From assembly GCA_010094045.1 (NCBI GenBank), contig ML986776.1, forward strand, positions 1 to 64,000: 64,000 nucleotides of DNA, read 5' to 3'. The position numbers were made by a program, and so were the translations under genes. The DNA comes from Lojkania enalia (taxonomy: Eukaryota > Ascomycota > Dothideomycetes > Pleosporales). Below, one piece after another: positions 19,811-40,810 of the stretch; the first letter of the stretch is position 1; each line of letters opens with the position of its first letter. Under the pieces are notes generated by a model. The model searched no databases and was not told the DNA's origin. It was given only the letters and a program-made list of their open reading frames with translations.

Positions 19811-21571
19811 ATGCAGATGTCTGCAAGTAGCGAACGCCAGGAAAACAGGCTCATAATTAGTTTAGACTTCGGTACGACATACAGTGGGCAAGTCTTCGGT
19901 GATGACTACTATTTACGGATGCTAATAATTGTAGGATCGCTTACGCATTCACAGACATTGTCGATACTATTTCCGCCATAGGAGACTGGCCTGGAGCCCA
20001 AGGTAGGAAAGCATGGAAAGCACCAACAGCTATAAAGTATACTGGAAATAACTCGTTGAAATGGGGATTTGATGTCGAAAATGACCTAGAGCAAGTTATC
20101 CATGGATTCAAGTTGCTCCTTGATCCGGAGCAGACAAAGCCTATCTACGATCCTATGGGCGTTGGCTCTGTCAGCACGGAGTTGAAGCGCCTCGGCAAGT
20201 CGGCTGTTGATGTTTCATCTGATTACATGAGAGCAATATATGAACATTCCTTGAAAGAGATTGAGAGTAGAATTCCAAGAGAGTACTTTGCACAGTTAGA
20301 AAGAGAATATGTGCTTACTGTTCCGGCGGTTTGGTCAGATAAGACGAGGGATGCGACTCGTCGAGTAAGTTATACAGGCACTCATATATATGTACTTATT
20401 TGGGGGTAGGCTGCTCGAAATGCAGGGATAACTCCGGTGAAGATGATAAGCGAGCCAGAAGCAGCTGCGCTATTCACACTGAACCAGCTTAAGAACCTAG
20501 GTCTAGAGGTACTACCTTCACTAAGTATAGCTCCAATGTAATGCTGACTTTGTCCTATAGGATGGCGATGCGTTGACGATATGTGATGCTGGAGGGGGCA
20601 CAGTCGATCTTGTGTCCTACGAAATTAACCAACTCGAACCACTACAAATTAAAATGATTGCTCCTCCATCTGGCGAGTATTCTCTTACTATTTGAGGTAT
20701 TCTCTCAATCTGACTCTGAATAGGTGGCCTAGCAGGGTCGATACTTGTCAACAAGCGATTCGAGCAGTGGGTTAGAGACAAGGTTGGGGAAAACACCTTC
20801 TACAGTTTGAAAGGTACCAGCGCATATAAACGAGGAATGAGGTATTTTGATCAAGCCGTGAAGCCTGGATTTGGCTGTGGGGATGATGAGGAGGAACATT
20901 ATATCAACTTTCCAATGGCCCATATCGAGGATGACCCTGCTAACGGCATCAGGGCTAATACTCTTATCCTTACTAGGTATGTAGCTCTTCTATGGGCTTT
21001 GCGCAACTCTCAAAGGAATATAGTAGCGAGTTACATGACATATTTTTGCCTGTTGTCCAAGAAGTCGACCGGCTTGTCAAATACCAGATCGATTCTGTCC
21101 GGCTCGCACGCTTACAGAACCAACATCCTAAGGGGGCCACTGTCAAAGTAAGCTAGAATACTATATTTTTGATGAGATGTACTAACTATAGATTCGGCTA
21201 TATTTCTCGTTGGTGGCTTTGGATCTAGTGCCTTTTTGAGGAAATTCTTATCCTCCTCTCACCCAAATATTCAAGTGATCCAACCTGCTGAAGCGTGAGT
21301 TTTCTCCAAAATTTGTCTTCGCGCCATGACTAATCAAACTCTAACATAGGATTTCTGCCGTAATGAAGTATGGAGACTAATAGTCTACCGAATTCACATA
21401 CTAACTGAGTCCAGAGGTGCCGTGCTTAGCAAGCTTTCTGGAGTGGCGACGATCGTGTCTGACTGTAGAGATGATATTTCTAGAGGGAATCTAGAAAACC
21501 CGACAGGAAGCCCTTGGGGTCAATACGAAGCATCTAGTAGATACGGAGTTCTCAATTGGCGTGTTAAAAAG
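19811..21571 (+). CDS. HSP70/HSPA12-like ATPase domain, probable N-terminal half of a fusion with HET
   Basis: Reconstructed exons are 19811-19887, 19935-20364, 20410-20508, 20561-20672, 20724-20976, 21024-21147, 21192-21294, 21350-21367 and 21415-21571, about 458 codons. Actin-fold ATP-binding motifs appear in order: SLDFGTTYSGIAYAF (phosphate 1) near residue 19, YVLTVPAVWSDKTRDATRR, ISEPEAAAL, ICDAGGGTVDLVSYE (phosphate 2) and AIFLVGGFGSSAFL (adenosine). This is the divergent HSPA12-like family expanded in fungi. The first and fourth introns use GC rather than GT donors. At the sixth intron (21148-21191) the phases do not match: one base is missing relative to an expected AAAG/GTAAGC junction, so the allele may be frameshifted or the assembly may have lost a G. 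The protein ends just after the conserved SSRYG motif, without the usual C-terminal region, and the last exon splices in phase into the HET exon at 21618. Confidence 0.72.
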
Positions 21572-21617
21572 GTGAGATTCTGTGTCCTGTATAGTTTTAA
21601 TGCCTAATTCTACATAG

Positions 21618-23424
21618 GAAATTGATCAGATCAAAGCTCCGAGAAACACAGCTCCCCGGTTACTGAAAGCTACCACCCTTCAATTCGAAGAATTTATTGG
21701 AAAGAGGGTTCCTCCTTATGTAATCTTGTCGCATGCATGGGGACCCGATGAAATTTTGTTTGCAGATATCCAGATGGGTCAAGCAGGCAAAAAGGGGGCA
21801 TTCGGGAAGCTGAAGGGATTTTGTGACCAGGCTATTCGTGATGGTTATGAGTATGTCTGGATTGATACGTGCTGGTAAGAGCAAACTCCCAACTAGGATG
21901 ATGGACTGTATTAAACTGAACAGCATCGACAAGACGAGCAGTGCTGAGCTTTCTGAGTCTATCAACTGCATGTACCAGTGGTACAAAAGTGCGGATATTT
22001 GCTACGTATATTTGGCCGATGTTTCATGTCAGACCTTGGCAAACAACCAGAATGTCGACGCCAAAACCATCCGGAATTTTCAAGGTAGTCGATGGTTCAC
22101 AAGAGGATGGACACTTCAAGAATTGATTGCCCCTCCGATTGTGGAGTTTTATACTTTAGAATGGCTTGAAATCGGAACAAAATCTAGTCTCAAAGAGCTC
22201 CTTTCTACCATAACTGGCATTCACATTAGTGTGCTTGCCGGGGCCGCACCCTCTTCTCGTAACATAGCGGAAAGAATGTCTTGGGCAGCATCTCGGCAAA
22301 CTACAAAGATAGAGGACATGGCTTACTGCCTTCTGGGTCTCTTCGAAGTCAATATGTCTTTATTGTACGGAGAAGGCGAGAAAGCATTTACGAGACTACA
22401 AGAAGAGATTTTGAAGAAGTACGAAGACTACACTATCTTCGCATGGTTTATGAGGAGCGAGCAAATGGCTACAGGAAGACTGTTGGCGAGCTCTGTAGCC
22501 CAATTCGATTATAGAAAAAACATTCCTAGGGATAGTGAGAGCATATATTCTGACTACTCTGAACTAACCCATGACCCTGGATTCACCACGGAGTTTGCCG
22601 GCTCAACGTCACTCAATGAGATCGACCCCCCTATATTGACCAGTAGAGGTATACGTATAAGTCTGGCTCTTCTTGAGCAACAGGGTACCTATTCAGCTTA
22701 TTTAAATTGCCAAACAAGATACGGTGGAGGCGACATGCTATGCATTTACCTCCTACCGTTTGGACACGACCGTCACTCGTTCGGAAGGGTCTTCTCTGGA
22801 GCCACTTCTGGTGTTGGAGGCCTCCATGTGATTCCAGCATGGAAGCGTAATCAATTTCAAATGCGAACTATCTACGTCCGCGATCTAAGCCAGGGCATTC
22901 CGCCTTCAATGGGAAAAAACAGAATGGTTTGCTTCTCTGTCAAAGTGGAGTCCACCAGGACACACGATCCGTCCGTCATTGGAGCTTTCCCAATAATGTG
23001 CTTCCTGGGTTCAGAGCTATTGATTCCATTGAACCAAGATTCTCTCGCAGGCTTGCTGATACATACGAATCCCTCGAATTCTCTCTTAATTCTCTGCGGA
23101 GTCGGTGAGGGTCATCCTTGGTGTGATGTCGTCTCGGAATTTCGACTTCGACACAACGGTCGTATGATCTGCCAGGATGACTTTAGTCTTGGATACAACA
23201 TCATTACATCCGAAGATGCTCGCATCGACCTTGGAGAGATTTTGACTACTCCTTCGGTAGATACACTGAGCAAAATGGAGTTGCGGGTGGACCGGATGCA
23301 CAAAACTCTACCCTCTGCGCGTGGTTCTGTTTTTGTGTCAGTTAAAAAATCGGCAGTGACCCATGTGATAAATTCCCTAGGAGGTGAATTTTCCGGCTAC
23401 GTATTGCATATAATTTTTTCCTAG
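21618..23424 (+). CDS. HET (heterokaryon incompatibility) domain, probable C-terminal half of the HSP70 fusion
   Basis: Exons are 21618-21874 and 21924-23424, about 585 codons to the stop. HET motifs are clear: PRLLKATTLQFEEF and YVILSHAWG, then YEYVWIDTC spliced in phase to CIDKTSSAELSESINCMYQW, then SRWFTRGWTLQELIAPP and later SWAASRQTTKIEDMAYCLLG with LLYGEGEKAF. No in-frame ATG precedes the first HET motif. The exon instead begins at a TACATAG acceptor whose phase exactly continues the HSP70-like exon ending at 21571, through a 46-bp GTGAGA...CTAAT...TAG intron. HET domains (TIR-related) execute regulated cell death after non-self recognition in fungi. If this were a separate gene, it would have to start at a Met after the first two motifs, which argues for the fusion. 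Confidence 0.85.
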
Positions 23425-23479
23425 CTGCTTTCAAGAAAAGTGTTGACATTTCAATTCACAAGTATATAGTTATCTGGCA

Positions 23480-25283
<1,804 letters not shown>

Positions 25284-36563: not shown

Positions 36564-39500
36564 ATGGCCGAAGCTCTTGCCGCTATCAGCGTTGTCTCCA
36601 ACATCGTCCAGCTTGTTGATTTCAGTACTAGAGTTATACATCGCATTGAAGAGTTCTACTCCCTCGTAGGAGAAGTTCCGAAGTCTTTTCGTCACGTTAA
36701 AGCTGAGCTCCCTCTATTGAAAACTACGCTTCAGCAGATTAAAGAAGCTATCAAAGCGGACTCCGTGGCGGACGTAACTAGAAAAGCTCTTTTGCCCGTG
36801 ATAGCAGGATGTCGAGAGCAAATCGATCAGCTAGACGCTATTCTCGCGAAAACGTTACCCGAAATCAATGACAGCTGGCAGAGAAGGAGTAAGAAGGCGA
36901 TAGTAAGCCTACACCAGGATTCTAAGGTCGAAGGCATTACAAAGATCCTGCGAAACTATGTTGGGGTCTTAACGTTCTACTGCGCTGCTCTATCGTCGTC
37001 ATTACAGCCTCTTACAGGTAGGCATATTTTTAACGACTTATACGGACTCTAGACTAAGTATTCGTTTGTAGATGCCAAACTCTCTAAGATCCGCTGGTGG
37101 CTATCTGCGCCGGATCCCTCTGTAAACTACCGAAAAGCGTTTAAGCAACGACAGGCTGATACTGGGCTTTGGTTTCTTGAGAGCGAACAATACACTGGAT
37201 GGAAGATGGACGCTGTGCCTCTTTGGCTGTATGGAATCCCGGGGTGCGGCAAGACTGTACTAAGCTCTACTATTCTCCAAAATGTGCTCCAACACTGCCA
37301 GGATGATCCTGCGAAGGTAACTGCGTATTTCTTCTTCGACTTTAATGATGAGCAGAAGCAGGACCCGGAGATGATGCTGCGCTCGTTGCTGTGCCAGCTC
37401 TCACAGCAATCTATTAAGATCCCTGCGAGCCTCGACACCCTGTTCTCTTCTTGCGAAAACGGGCAGCGGCAACCGTCAGTTTATGCGCTTCTGGAGGCAG
37501 TGCGACAACTGATGCAGGAGTTTCCGCAGGTCTATGTTGTTCTCGATGCTCTAGATGAATGCGCTCGACGTGCAGAGGTAATGGACATACTTGAAACAAT
37601 GGCTCAATGGCAGCTTCAGAATTTACACCTTCTGGTAACGAGCAGAAGAGAACGGGATATCGAGAGCTCCTTAGAAGGGTTTGTAGACGAGCAGAACAGG
37701 ATCTGTCTTCAGAGCGGACAAGTTGACAAAGACATACAACGATACGTCCGACAAAGGCTTATTGACGACAAAAACCTACACAAATGGGAGAAAGACGCTG
37801 TTATTAAGCAAGAGATTGAGACTGCCTTAATGCAAGGAGCTCATGGGATGTATGAATCCTCTTTTGAATCCCAAGCTGTCTAACGCTAATAATCACCAAA
37901 GGTTTCGATGGGCCGTATGTCAGCTTGACACATTAGGAAAGTGTCGCAATAGAGCAATGCTCCGCAAAGCCCTCACTACATTGCCGCAAACATTGGATCA
38001 GACATACGACCGCATTCTCTCTACTATCGGCGAAGAGGATTCCAAGTATGCCATTCGCATTCTACAGTGGCTGACCTGCTCAGCCCGACCACTCTCAGTA
38101 AATGAAGTCGCCGAAGTCGTCGCCATTGACATAGAGCGCGACCCTGCGTTTAACCGCGATGAAATCCTGGAAGACCCTCTAGAAGTGTTGGATATCTGCT
38201 CTAGTCTTGTTACCATAACTGTAGACGATCGAAACAAGTGGGAAAGGTCAGTGACACGAGTTGTTTCATTAGCACACTACTCAGTTAAGGAGTACCTCCT
38301 CTCAGACAGAATCCAGAAAGGCCGAGCAGCACATTATAGCATGCAAGAAACTGTATGCCACAATGCTATAGCAAAGGGCTGCCTTGGATACCTTCTTCAG
38401 TTCCAACAGGCAGAGCTGTCCGCAGAAGGAGTTCTTGAGGACTTGACGCTCGCACGATACTCGGCTGAGTTCTGGATCAGCCACGCTAAGAAGATAGGTG
38501 GGAAAATAGAGGAGATGAGCCGAGATATAATAAATCTGCTCTCAACGGAAAACTTTGCGTATATTAACTGGATCCGGTTATATAACCTTGACAGACCTTG
38601 GGATGAGCCCGATTTTTCAAAGGTTCTAAAATGGGAACCGGCTCCATTATACTACGCAGCACTCTCAGGCCTAAGTGGGGTGATGAAGCTGCTGCTCGAT
38701 AAGGGCGACGACCCGAACGTACAGGGCGGACGGTACGGCAACGCACTCCAGGCGGCTTCATCTGCAGGCCACGGGCAGGCAGTGAAGCTTCTGCTTGACA
38801 AGGACGCCGATCTGAACGCACAGGGTGGATACTACGGCAACGCACTCCAGGCGGCTTCATATAGAAACCACAAGCAGGTAGTGAAGTTGCTGCTTGACAA
38901 GGGAGCCGACCCGAACGCACAGGGTGGAGAGTACGGCAACGCACTCCAGGCGGCTTCATCTGGAGGCCACGAGCAGGTAGTGAAGCTGCTACTTGACAAG
39001 GGCGCCGACCCAAACGCACAAGGTAGACACAATAGCAACGCACTCCAGGCGGCTTCATCTGGAGGCCACGAGCAGGTAGTGAAGCTTCTGCTCGACAAGG
39101 GCGCCGACCTGAACGCACAGGGTGGGTACTACGGCAACGCACTTTATGCGGCTTCATCTGGAGGCCACGAGCAAGTGGTGAAGCTTCTGCTCGACAAGGA
39201 CGCCGACCCGAACGCACAGGGTGGACACTATGGCAACGCACTCCAGGCGGCTTCATCCGAAGGCCACGAGCAGGTAGTGAAGCTTCTGCTTGACAAGGGT
39301 GTCGACCCGAATGCACAGGGTGGATACTACGGCAACGCACTTTATGCGGCTTCATCTGGAGGCCACAAACAGGTAGTGAAGCTTCTGCTCGACAAGGACG
39401 CCGACTCGAACGCACAGGGTGGATACTACGGCAATGCACTCCAGGCGGCTTCATCCGAAGGCCACGAGCAGGTAGTGAGGCTTCTGCTTGACAAGGGCGC

Positions 39501-40810
39501 CGACCCGAACGCACAGGGTGGAGAGTACGGCAATGCACTCCAGGCGGCTTCATCTGGAGGCCACGAGCAGGTAGTGAAGCTTCTGCTCGAAAAGGGCGCC
39601 GACCCAAACGCACNNNNNNNNNNNNNNNNNNNNNNNNNNNNNNNNNNNNNNNNNNNNNNNNNNNNNNNNNNNNNNNNNNNNNNNNNNNNNNNNNNNNNNN
39701 NNNNNNNNNNNNNNNNNNNNNNNNNNNNNNNNNNNNNNNNNNNNNNNNNNNNNNNNNNNNNNNNNNNNNNNNNNNNNNNNNNNNNNNNNNNNNNNNNNNN
39801 NNNNNNNNNNNNNNNNNNNNNNNNNNNNNNNNNNNNNNNNNNNNNNNNNNNNNNNNNNNNNNNNNNNNNNNNNNNNNNNNNNNNNNNNNNNNNNNNNNNN
39901 NNNNNNNNNNNNNNNNNNNNNNNNNNNNNNNNNNNNNNNNNNNNNNNNNNNNNNNNNNNNNNNNNNNNNNNNNNNNNNNNNNNNNNNNNNNNNNNNNNNN
40001 NNNNNNNNNNNNNNNNNNNNNNNNNNNNNNNNNNNNNNNNNNNNNNNNNNNNNNNNNNNNNNNNNNNNNNNNNNNNNNNNNNNNNNNNNNNNNNNNNNNN
40101 NNNNNNNNNNNNNNNNNNNNNNNNNNNNNNNNNNNNNNNNNNNNNNNNNNNNNNNNNNNNNNNNNNNNNNNNNNNNNNNNNNNNNNNNNNNNNNNNNNNN
40201 NNNNNNNNNNNNNNNNNNNNNNNNNNNNNNNNNNNNNNNNNNNNNNNNNNNNNNNNNNNNNNNNNNNNNNNNNNNNNNNNNNNAGGGCGCTGACCCGAAT
40301 GCACAAGATGGAGAGTACGGCAACGCACTCCAGGCGGCTTCATCTGGAGGTTACGAGCAGGTAGTGAAGCTTCTGCTCGACAAGGGCGTCGACCCGAACG
40401 CACAGGGCGGGTACTACGACAACGCACTCTATGCGGCTTCATCTGGAGGCCACGATCAGGTGGTGAAGCTCCTGCTCTATAAGGGCGCCGACCCGAATGC
40501 ACAGGGTAGATACAACGGCAATGCACTCCAGGCGGCTTCATCTGGAGGCCACGAGCAGGTAGTGAAGCTTCTGCTCGACAAGGGCGCTGACCCGAACGCA
40601 CAGGGTGGATACTATGGTAACGCACTTTATACGGCTTCATCTGGAGGCCACGAGCAGGTAGTGAGGCTTCTGCTCGACAAGGGCGCCGACCTGAACTCAC
40701 AGGGTGGAGAGTACGGCAACGCACTCTATGCGGCTTTAGAAGAAGGCCACGAGCAGGTGGTGAAGCTGCTACTCGACAAGGGTCCTAATATCAACGCGTG
40801 TGATGAATAG
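36564..40810 (+). CDS. NLR-type STAND protein: SesA-like N domain, NACHT, ankyrin repeats
   Basis: Exons are 36564-37017, 37072-37849 and 37902-40810, the last interrupted by an N-gap at 39614-40283. Phases match at both introns (GTAGGC/TTGTAG and GTATGA/AAAG). Residues 1-150 (MAEALAAISVVSNIVQLVDF, PLLKTTLQQIKEAIKAD) are the N-terminal domain that Pfam places on NACHT NTPases (SesA-like). The NACHT core has Walker A GIPGCGKT near residue 205 and Walker B YVVLDALDEC near 304, then LLVTSRRERDIE. The winged-helix region (WLTCSARPLSVNEVAEVVAID) and VSLAHYSVKEYLLS follow. From about residue 657 come 33-aa ankyrin repeats, nine full before the gap and five after it. Such proteins act in fungal non-self recognition and programmed cell death. 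All domains appear intact. Confidence 0.9.
38664..40800 (+). repeat. Near-identical 99-bp ankyrin-repeat array
   Basis: Each 99-bp unit encodes a 33-aa repeat of the form VKLLLDKGADPNAQGGxYGNALQAASSGGHEQV. Visible copies differ at only a few positions: after the QGG (Y, E, H, R plus Y, N or H), after NAL (Q or Y), the GAD triad (G/D, A/V, P/L/S) and the loop before H (SGG, SEG, YRN, SAG). High identity between units implies recent unit exchange or homogenisation, and explains why the assembly broke here. Confidence 0.92.
39614..40283. other. Assembly gap (N run) inside the ankyrin array
   Basis: A run of about 670 N interrupts the repeats. The coding frame before the gap (codon starts at 1 mod 3) and after it (2 mod 3) differ. 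The N count therefore cannot be the true length if the gene is intact, and the true repeat number is unknown. Confidence 0.98.

What the first reader, a model, noticed from the sequence alone, without database searches (positions are those of the whole stretch)
19811..23424. HSP70 (HSPA12-like) ATPase domain spliced in frame to a HET cell-death domain
The HSP70-like exon ending at 21571 and the HET exon starting at 21618 are separated by a normal 46-bp intron, and the phase is exact. The HET part has no in-frame ATG before its first two conserved motifs, and the HSP70 part lacks its usual C-terminal region. One chimeric protein of about 1040 aa is therefore the simplest reading. HET domains usually sit on NACHT/WD or stand alone; I know of no described HSP70-HET protein. 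A chaperone-type ATP switch controlling a HET effector would be a new receptor or effector design.
Basis: partly seen in the sequence, partly recalled or inferred. Interest (0 to 1): 0.88.

Follow-up and report, generated by a model that had tools for sequence, protein, structure and literature searches.

The report
Hsp70–HET fusion gene with broken frame
In the fungus Lojkania enalia the end of a chaperone-like ATPase gene is joined, in frame at the joint, to a HET-type cell-death gene that lacks its own start codon, but an upstream splice site appears to be lost, so this copy is predicted to make little or none of the joined protein.

Summary
The junction is real: Hsp70 exon 9 (to 21571) and the HET-bearing exon 10 (from 21618) flank a good 46-nt intron in matching phase. 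That intron is most likely an old Hsp70 intron: 3 of 6 readable Hsp70 paralogs in the same genome have one at the corresponding place. So the HET sequence replaced the end of an Hsp70 gene, probably inside exon 10. The HET half looks like a whole HET–lectin-fold protein, as in BH of Podospora, with Pro where 87 of 98 relatives have the start Met. None of the relatives listed in three protein searches combines Hsp70 and HET. At intron 6 the strong GT donor and nearest AG shift the frame, with a stop after residue 380. Of 82 possible GT–AG introns one keeps the frame, and it deletes the VGGFG motif. The one frame-keeping GC–AG choice that spares exon 6 and GGFGSS has a chance-level donor. Public annotation splits the locus into two incomplete proteins. 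Most likely this is a real chimeric gene, so far seen in one genome, recently disabled or hardly expressed. A working Hsp70–HET receptor is possible but unproven.

The parts
19811..19887 (+). Hsp70 exon 1 (start ATG 19811, or 19817 as in the public record P0240); contains DFGTTYSG
19888..19934 (+). intron 1, GC-AG donor GCAAGT
   Evidence: a decayed paralog has a GT intron at about the same place (read by eye)
19935..20364 (+). Hsp70 exon 2
20410..20508 (+). Hsp70 exon 3
20561..20672 (+). Hsp70 exon 4; contains CDAGGGTVDL
20673..20723 (+). intron 4, GC-AG donor GCGAGT
20724..20976 (+). Hsp70 exon 5
21024..21147 (+). Hsp70 exon 6 (to 21151 only if the weak GC donor were used)
21148..21191 (+). 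intron 6: strong GT donor; the nearest AG leaves 5 extra nt before the codon that follows this point in relatives, so the frame breaks
21192..21294 (+). Hsp70 exon 7; AIFLVGGFGSS motif, out of frame under normal splicing
21350..21367 (+). Hsp70 exon 8; ATG 21363 is the start used by public protein P0001
21415..21571 (+). Hsp70 exon 9: last NBD helix (GAVLSKL) and the first part of the C-terminal beta domain
21572..21617 (+). intron 9, most likely an old Hsp70 intron (phase 0), which joins the two halves
21618..21653 (+). first 12 codons of exon 10 (EIDQIKAPRNTA), at the place where Hsp70 exon 10 starts; fusion joint probably here
   Evidence: residue similarity of these codons is too weak to prove origin
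21654..21874 (+). start of the HET sequence (PRLLKATT...; Pro where relatives have the start Met)
21875..21923 (+). intron 10, inside the HET domain
21924..23424 (+). rest of the HET domain, middle region and C-terminal lectin-fold domain; stop TAG at 23422-23424

Best explanation
This locus is a gene fusion in the DNA, in which the end of an Hsp70 gene has been replaced, probably inside its own exon 10, by a HET–lectin-type gene lacking its start codon, and the copy is likely disabled because normal splicing of intron 6 is predicted to shift the frame. Shown: both halves, the intact junction intron, an intron at the corresponding place in 3 of 6 readable Hsp70 paralogs, the missing HET start, and the lack of a single GT-AG intron at intron 6 that keeps both the frame and the VGGFG motif. 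Inferred: transcription starts at the Hsp70 promoter; intron 9, inherited from Hsp70, splices the ATPase exons onto the HET exon; when the frame was open this made an NBD–HET–lectin protein; loss of the intron-6 acceptor at its ancestral place then stopped it, leaving a truncated ATPase of about 380 residues. If made, the protein would likely have used the ATPase as a conformational or oligomer switch on a HET effector that already carries a recognition-type lectin domain.
For: Spliced model and junction phase. Paralogs with an intron right after the motif that ends exon 9: L010 (MQWHIAK | GAQVSEAQ, GT-AG, phase 0), L013 (MQWFLKR | GDNILEAQ, GT-AG, phase 0) and the decayed L018 (MAWLIKK | GGDLER). 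HET relatives: 87 of 98 begin with Met directly before an RLL-like triplet, 72 of 98 exactly MRLL; here PRLL. All 10 aligned Hsp70 relatives run [VI][KR] directly into AIFLVGG or MIFLVGG, so the 5 nt left after the nearest AG are out of place. Stop after residue 380; 1 of 82 GT-AG and 15 of 76 GC-AG introns keep the frame. GT donor 7.71 bits against -3.36 for the GC alternative (matrix from PMC5677156, passages). The GC alternative would make a 40-nt intron; the nine other introns are 45-55 nt and 2022 Fusarium introns are 42-529 nt. Public annotation also fails here: P0240 lacks AIFLVGGFGSS and ends at AEA, P0001 starts at ATG 21363. HET keeps 106 of 113 conserved columns; after the NBD the Hsp70 part keeps 2 of 6.
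Against: The ATPase part is otherwise open and keeps 101 of 112 conserved NBD columns, so constraint held until recently or still holds. Introns 1 and 4 already depend on GC donors, so unusual splicing of intron 6 cannot be ruled out. Three of the six readable paralogs (L012, L015, L021) have no intron at the place of intron 9. No RNA data were available. A base error in the assembly near intron 6 cannot be excluded.
Confidence: 0.6

Rival explanations
1. A working chimera: intron 6 is removed with the GC donor at 21152 (or another unusual site), giving a 1044-aa Hsp70 NBD–HET–lectin protein in which the ATPase cycle gates the HET effector.
For: Whole frame open under this choice; NBD motifs DFGTTYSG, CDAGGGTVDL and VGGFGSS present; 101 of 112 NBD columns kept; junction intron sound; introns 1 and 4 of the gene also use GC donors.
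Against: Donor at chance level (-3.36 bits, rank 11 of 18 local GT/GC sites), competing with a 7.71-bit GT donor 4 nt upstream; 40-nt intron; inserts VNS in a spot where 10 of 10 relatives have no insert; no relative with the architecture in the lists. Three GC-AG introns in one gene would be unusual, as GC-AG makes up 1.009% of fungal introns (PMC7072748, Table 1).
Confidence: 0.2
2. Two genes, as publicly annotated: an Hsp70-like fragment upstream, and a functional HET–lectin protein of 639 aa starting at ATG 21363 with a 54-residue Hsp70 leftover.
For: Public proteins P0240 (383 aa) and P0001 (639 aa); HET half well conserved (106 of 113 columns); the leftover is predicted disordered (pLDDT under 50), so it might do little harm.
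Against: The start lies inside Hsp70 exon 8 (no promoter was looked for); P0240 lacks both AIFLVGGFGSS and the IAYAFT stretch that follows TTYSG in relatives, so these look like automatic models forced round the frame break.
Confidence: 0.15
3. Sequence or assembly error at intron 6 in an otherwise intact fusion gene.
For: Only one frame break was found in a 3.6-kb gene with 11 exons.
Against: The break sits at a splice acceptor, a common kind of natural lesion; no other sign of poor sequence was seen in the gene (read quality could not be checked).
Confidence: 0.05

Closest known systems
Podospora anserina BH (het-B; HET–HAD–lectin fold; PMC10890737, passages)
   Different: HET is not N-terminal: its start Met is gone and an Hsp70 ATPase precedes it. 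No PII-like partner gene was searched for.
Fungal HSPA12-like Hsp70 proteins (P0121-P0130, 582-608 aa)
   Same: 52% (P0121) and 54% (P0123) identity over 100% and 90% of the 459-aa Hsp70 part; same ATPase motifs; intron 9 shared with some genome paralogs.
   Different: C-terminal beta domain cut inside (at about residue 476 of P0121; its model has the domain at 425-587); frame broken at intron 6. 'HSPA12-like' rests on the names of some hits (Heat shock 70 kDa protein 12B); HSPA12 itself was not compared.
HET–NACHT–WD40 (HNWD) receptors HET-E/D/R (PMC12881547, PMC10197012, passages)
   Same: A nucleotide-binding module and a HET effector on one chain, if the chimera is made.
   Different: Actin-like Hsp70 ATPase instead of a STAND NTPase; HET behind the ATPase, not N-terminal; no NACHT or WD match in the Pfam scan.
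Prokaryotic GTPase-centred conflict systems with Hsp70, some with an Hsp70 lacking its peptide-binding domain (PMC7159879, passages)
   Same: Idea of an Hsp70 ATPase without peptide-binding domain in a conflict system.
   Different: Separate genes in bacteria; the term 'HET domain' does not occur in that paper's main text; analogy only.

Membership tests
HET domain (PF06985) | profile match over curated cut-off | tested here: met
   51.8 bits in the full model, 53.2 in P0001, cut-off 22.5
HET domain (PF06985) | own start codon directly before the RLL-like triplet, as in 87 of 98 relatives | tested here: not met
   Pro in place of Met; next Met upstream is residue 406, in Hsp70 exon 8
Hsp70 (PF00012) | profile match over curated cut-off | tested here: met
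   31 bits, cut-off 20.6
Hsp70 (PF00012) | complete substrate-binding-like C-terminal domain | tested here: not met
   sequence leaves the family after the position of P0121 residue 476; no convincing C-terminal match in 21401-24700
Intact protein-coding gene | one open frame with GT-AG (or strong GC-AG) introns | tested here: not met
   intron 6: 1 of 82 GT-AG introns keeps the frame and deletes VGGFG; best GC choice has a chance-level donor
BH-type HET–HAD–lectin | C-terminal FB-lectin fold | tested here: met
BH-type HET–HAD–lectin | HAD middle domain | not tested
   region present by length; no HAD profile was compared
BH-type HET–HAD–lectin | adjacent PII-like Bp gene | not tested
   neighbouring open frames read by eye only
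Fungal NLR (NACHT/NB-ARC) | STAND nucleotide-binding domain on the same chain | tested here: not met
   no NACHT/NB-ARC match at E <= 0.001 in the Pfam scan of the 1044-aa model
TIR-like NADase | TIR fold in HET | tested here: inconclusive

The most novel reading that the evidence does not exclude
A fungal cell-death receptor in which an HSPA12-like actin-fold ATPase replaces the NACHT ATPase: the Hsp70 NBD gates a HET (TIR-like) effector that keeps its own lectin-fold recognition domain, expressed through unusual GC-AG splicing that could itself limit a toxic product.
Probability: 0.18. Interest if true: 0.8.

Novelty: new variant of a known kind. Interest (0 to 1): 0.42.

Why it matters
HET effectors are known on NACHT receptors, with ankyrin or lectin parts, or alone. 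A chaperone-type ATPase in front of one would be a new receptor layout and would link proteostasis ATPases to fungal cell death. Even as a disabled copy it shows how such architectures can arise: an effector joins behind a native intron, so one event gives a spliced, in-frame junction. It also shows why a sound junction is not enough: the frame must be checked through every upstream intron.

Tried and rejected
Looked for a separate HET start: no Met between residue 406 and residue 512; the ATG in intron 9 meets a stop at the end of that intron (read by eye). Looked for leftover Hsp70 C-terminus behind HET (HET inserted in Hsp70): nothing under E 0.14; the two best pieces are at the joint, the best one beyond the HET stop is 16 residues at E 0.19. 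Looked for HET next to other Hsp70 copies of the genome: no match in 15 loci, several of which overlap and all of which have short flanks. Looked for a close HET paralog as donor: apart from the two pieces of the locus itself, none of the 78 matches is over 54% identity, and the best long one is 47%. Two canonical introns in place of intron 6: the best of 367 solutions removes the VGGFG motif and needs a 32-nt intron. Skipping exons 6 and 7 together would keep the phase (2 to 2) but remove part of the NBD; not scored. P0231 (1072 aa, no precomputed domains) has no HET. Intron 9 in paralogs: 3 with, 3 without; L017/L028 and L023 could not be decided, and the motif was not found in L025-L027. 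Papers: 'HET domain', 'Hsp70-like', 'NLR' and 'fungi' together gave 0 papers. Four papers searched inside (PMC10197012, PMC12881547, PMC1325252, PMC10890737; term counts over the main text, and passages) have no 'hsp70'. One search found 2 papers with all four terms, one paper, and a long list; seen as listings only, apart from PMC10890737. 'Lojkania enalia' gave 0 papers. These searches cover only the held open-access library.

Full report
Source. The HET part matches public protein P0001 of Lojkania enalia (Pleosporales) at 100% on a 92319-bp contig, the length of contig C199 that holds the window. The held genome has 58.1 Mb in 400 contigs; 150 of 270 HET candidates were scored and all 150 matched.

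Gene model. Eleven exons run from 19811 to 23424. Introns 1 and 4 begin with GC (GCAAGT, GCGAGT); the rest begin with GT, if intron 6 is read with its strong donor. In fungal annotations GT-AG makes up 98.7% and GC-AG 1.009% of introns (PMC7072748, passages and Table 1), so two GC donors in one gene are unusual but not impossible. Exons 1-9 match fungal HSPA12-like Hsp70 proteins (P0121 52%, P0123 54%). Exons 10-11 match HET proteins.

The junction. Exon 9 ends LNWRVKK, which aligns to MTWYIHK of the relatives. In the same genome three Hsp70 paralogs have an intron right after this motif: L010 and L013 (GT-AG, phase 0) and the decayed L018. Three others (L012, L015, L021) read on without one, and L017/L028 and L023 could not be decided. 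So intron 9 most likely belongs to the Hsp70 gene, and the HET sequence joined downstream of it, probably inside exon 10. The 12 codons between the acceptor and PRLL lie where Hsp70 exon 10 begins, but their residue similarity is too weak to assign. The HET start Met is Pro here; 87 of 98 relatives begin with Met directly before an RLL-like triplet, 72 of them with exactly MRLL (98 of the 105 proteins P0016-P0120 were used, the others dropped by length). A plain two-gene reading with a HET start at the usual place therefore fails.

The break. All 10 aligned relatives run straight from [VI][KR] into (A/M)IFLVGG, and the decayed paralog has an intron at about that codon (read by eye). Here the strong donor at 21148 (7.71 bits, top 0.6% of 7398 GT/GC sites in the window) and the nearest AG at 21191 leave 5 nt before that codon, and the frame stops after residue 380. 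There is no AG directly in front of the expected codon. Of 82 GT-AG introns of 30-200 nt in exons 6-7, 1 keeps the frame (199 nt, deletes VGGFG). Of 76 GC-AG introns 15 do, and only 21152-21191 spares both exon 6 and GGFGSS. That donor scores -3.36 bits; 44% of all GT/GC sites do as well or better. Its intron would be 40 nt; the nine other introns are 45-55 nt and 2022 Fusarium introns are 42-529 nt. The donor matrix is from Fusarium, another class, so it is a proxy. The public annotation shows the same difficulty: P0240 (383 aa) leaves out AIFLVGGFGSS and IAYAFT and ends as if it read on into intron 7, and P0001 starts at ATG 21363.

Constraint. In the NBD 101 of 112 conserved columns are kept, and 5 of 111 relatives are as low or lower; after the NBD 2 of 6, and 0 of 111 are as low (111 of the 119 proteins P0121-P0239 were used, the others dropped by length). 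The HET half keeps 106 of 113, and 11 of 98 relatives are as low or lower. So the ATPase is slightly eroded, the cut beta domain more so, and HET is within the usual range. This fits a recent fusion that was disabled late, or one still in use.

Spread. In the best 120 of 7754 HET-side matches none carries PF00012 or PF27033. In the best 120 of 877 matches to the full model, the 119 other than P0001 list no PF06985. In the best 120 of 1700 Hsp70-side matches none lists PF06985. Three proteins without precomputed domains (P0231, P0267, P0274) were scanned and have no HET. The searches need shared 5-residue words and list only the top rows, so distant fusions could be missed.

Verdict. The fusion is real in the DNA, most likely anchored on a native Hsp70 intron, and not seen elsewhere in these searches. 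Production of the full chimera is doubtful. I give 0.6 to a disabled or barely expressed fusion gene, 0.2 to a working chimera, 0.15 to a separately started HET–lectin protein, and 0.05 to a sequence error. Names of neighbouring genes and of Hsp70 motifs and subdomains are recalled, not from a call.

Noticed in passing
window 37053-40810 (+): A NACHT-like P-loop ATPase frame followed by many near-identical ankyrin-type repeats interrupted by a run of N: a NACHT-ANK type receptor gene about 14 kb downstream, assembled with a gap (names recalled from the sequence).
   Followed up: no
L018 (G000:C4:363377-366937): A decayed copy of the same Hsp70 subfamily with several stops, 67-69% identical over its first two pieces to Lophiostoma P0123; it still shows old intron positions.
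   Followed up: partly
G000, several contigs: Many HET matches carry stop codons, often TAG and TAA, some more than ten in one stretch: many HET pseudogenes, perhaps from repeat-induced mutation.
   Followed up: no
P0179, P0182 (Chaetomium, 1579-1645 aa): Hsp70 (PF00012) with DUF3433 (PF11915) on one predicted protein: another possible Hsp70 fusion, or merged gene models.
   Followed up: partly
P0002, P0003, P0005, P0007, P0011: Several relatives appear to carry two or more HET domains in tandem on one chain, some with the inner copy starting RLL without Met (read by eye).
   Followed up: no
P0114: A HET protein listed under a Bathyarchaeota genome at 57% identity; probably fungal contamination of that assembly.
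   Followed up: no
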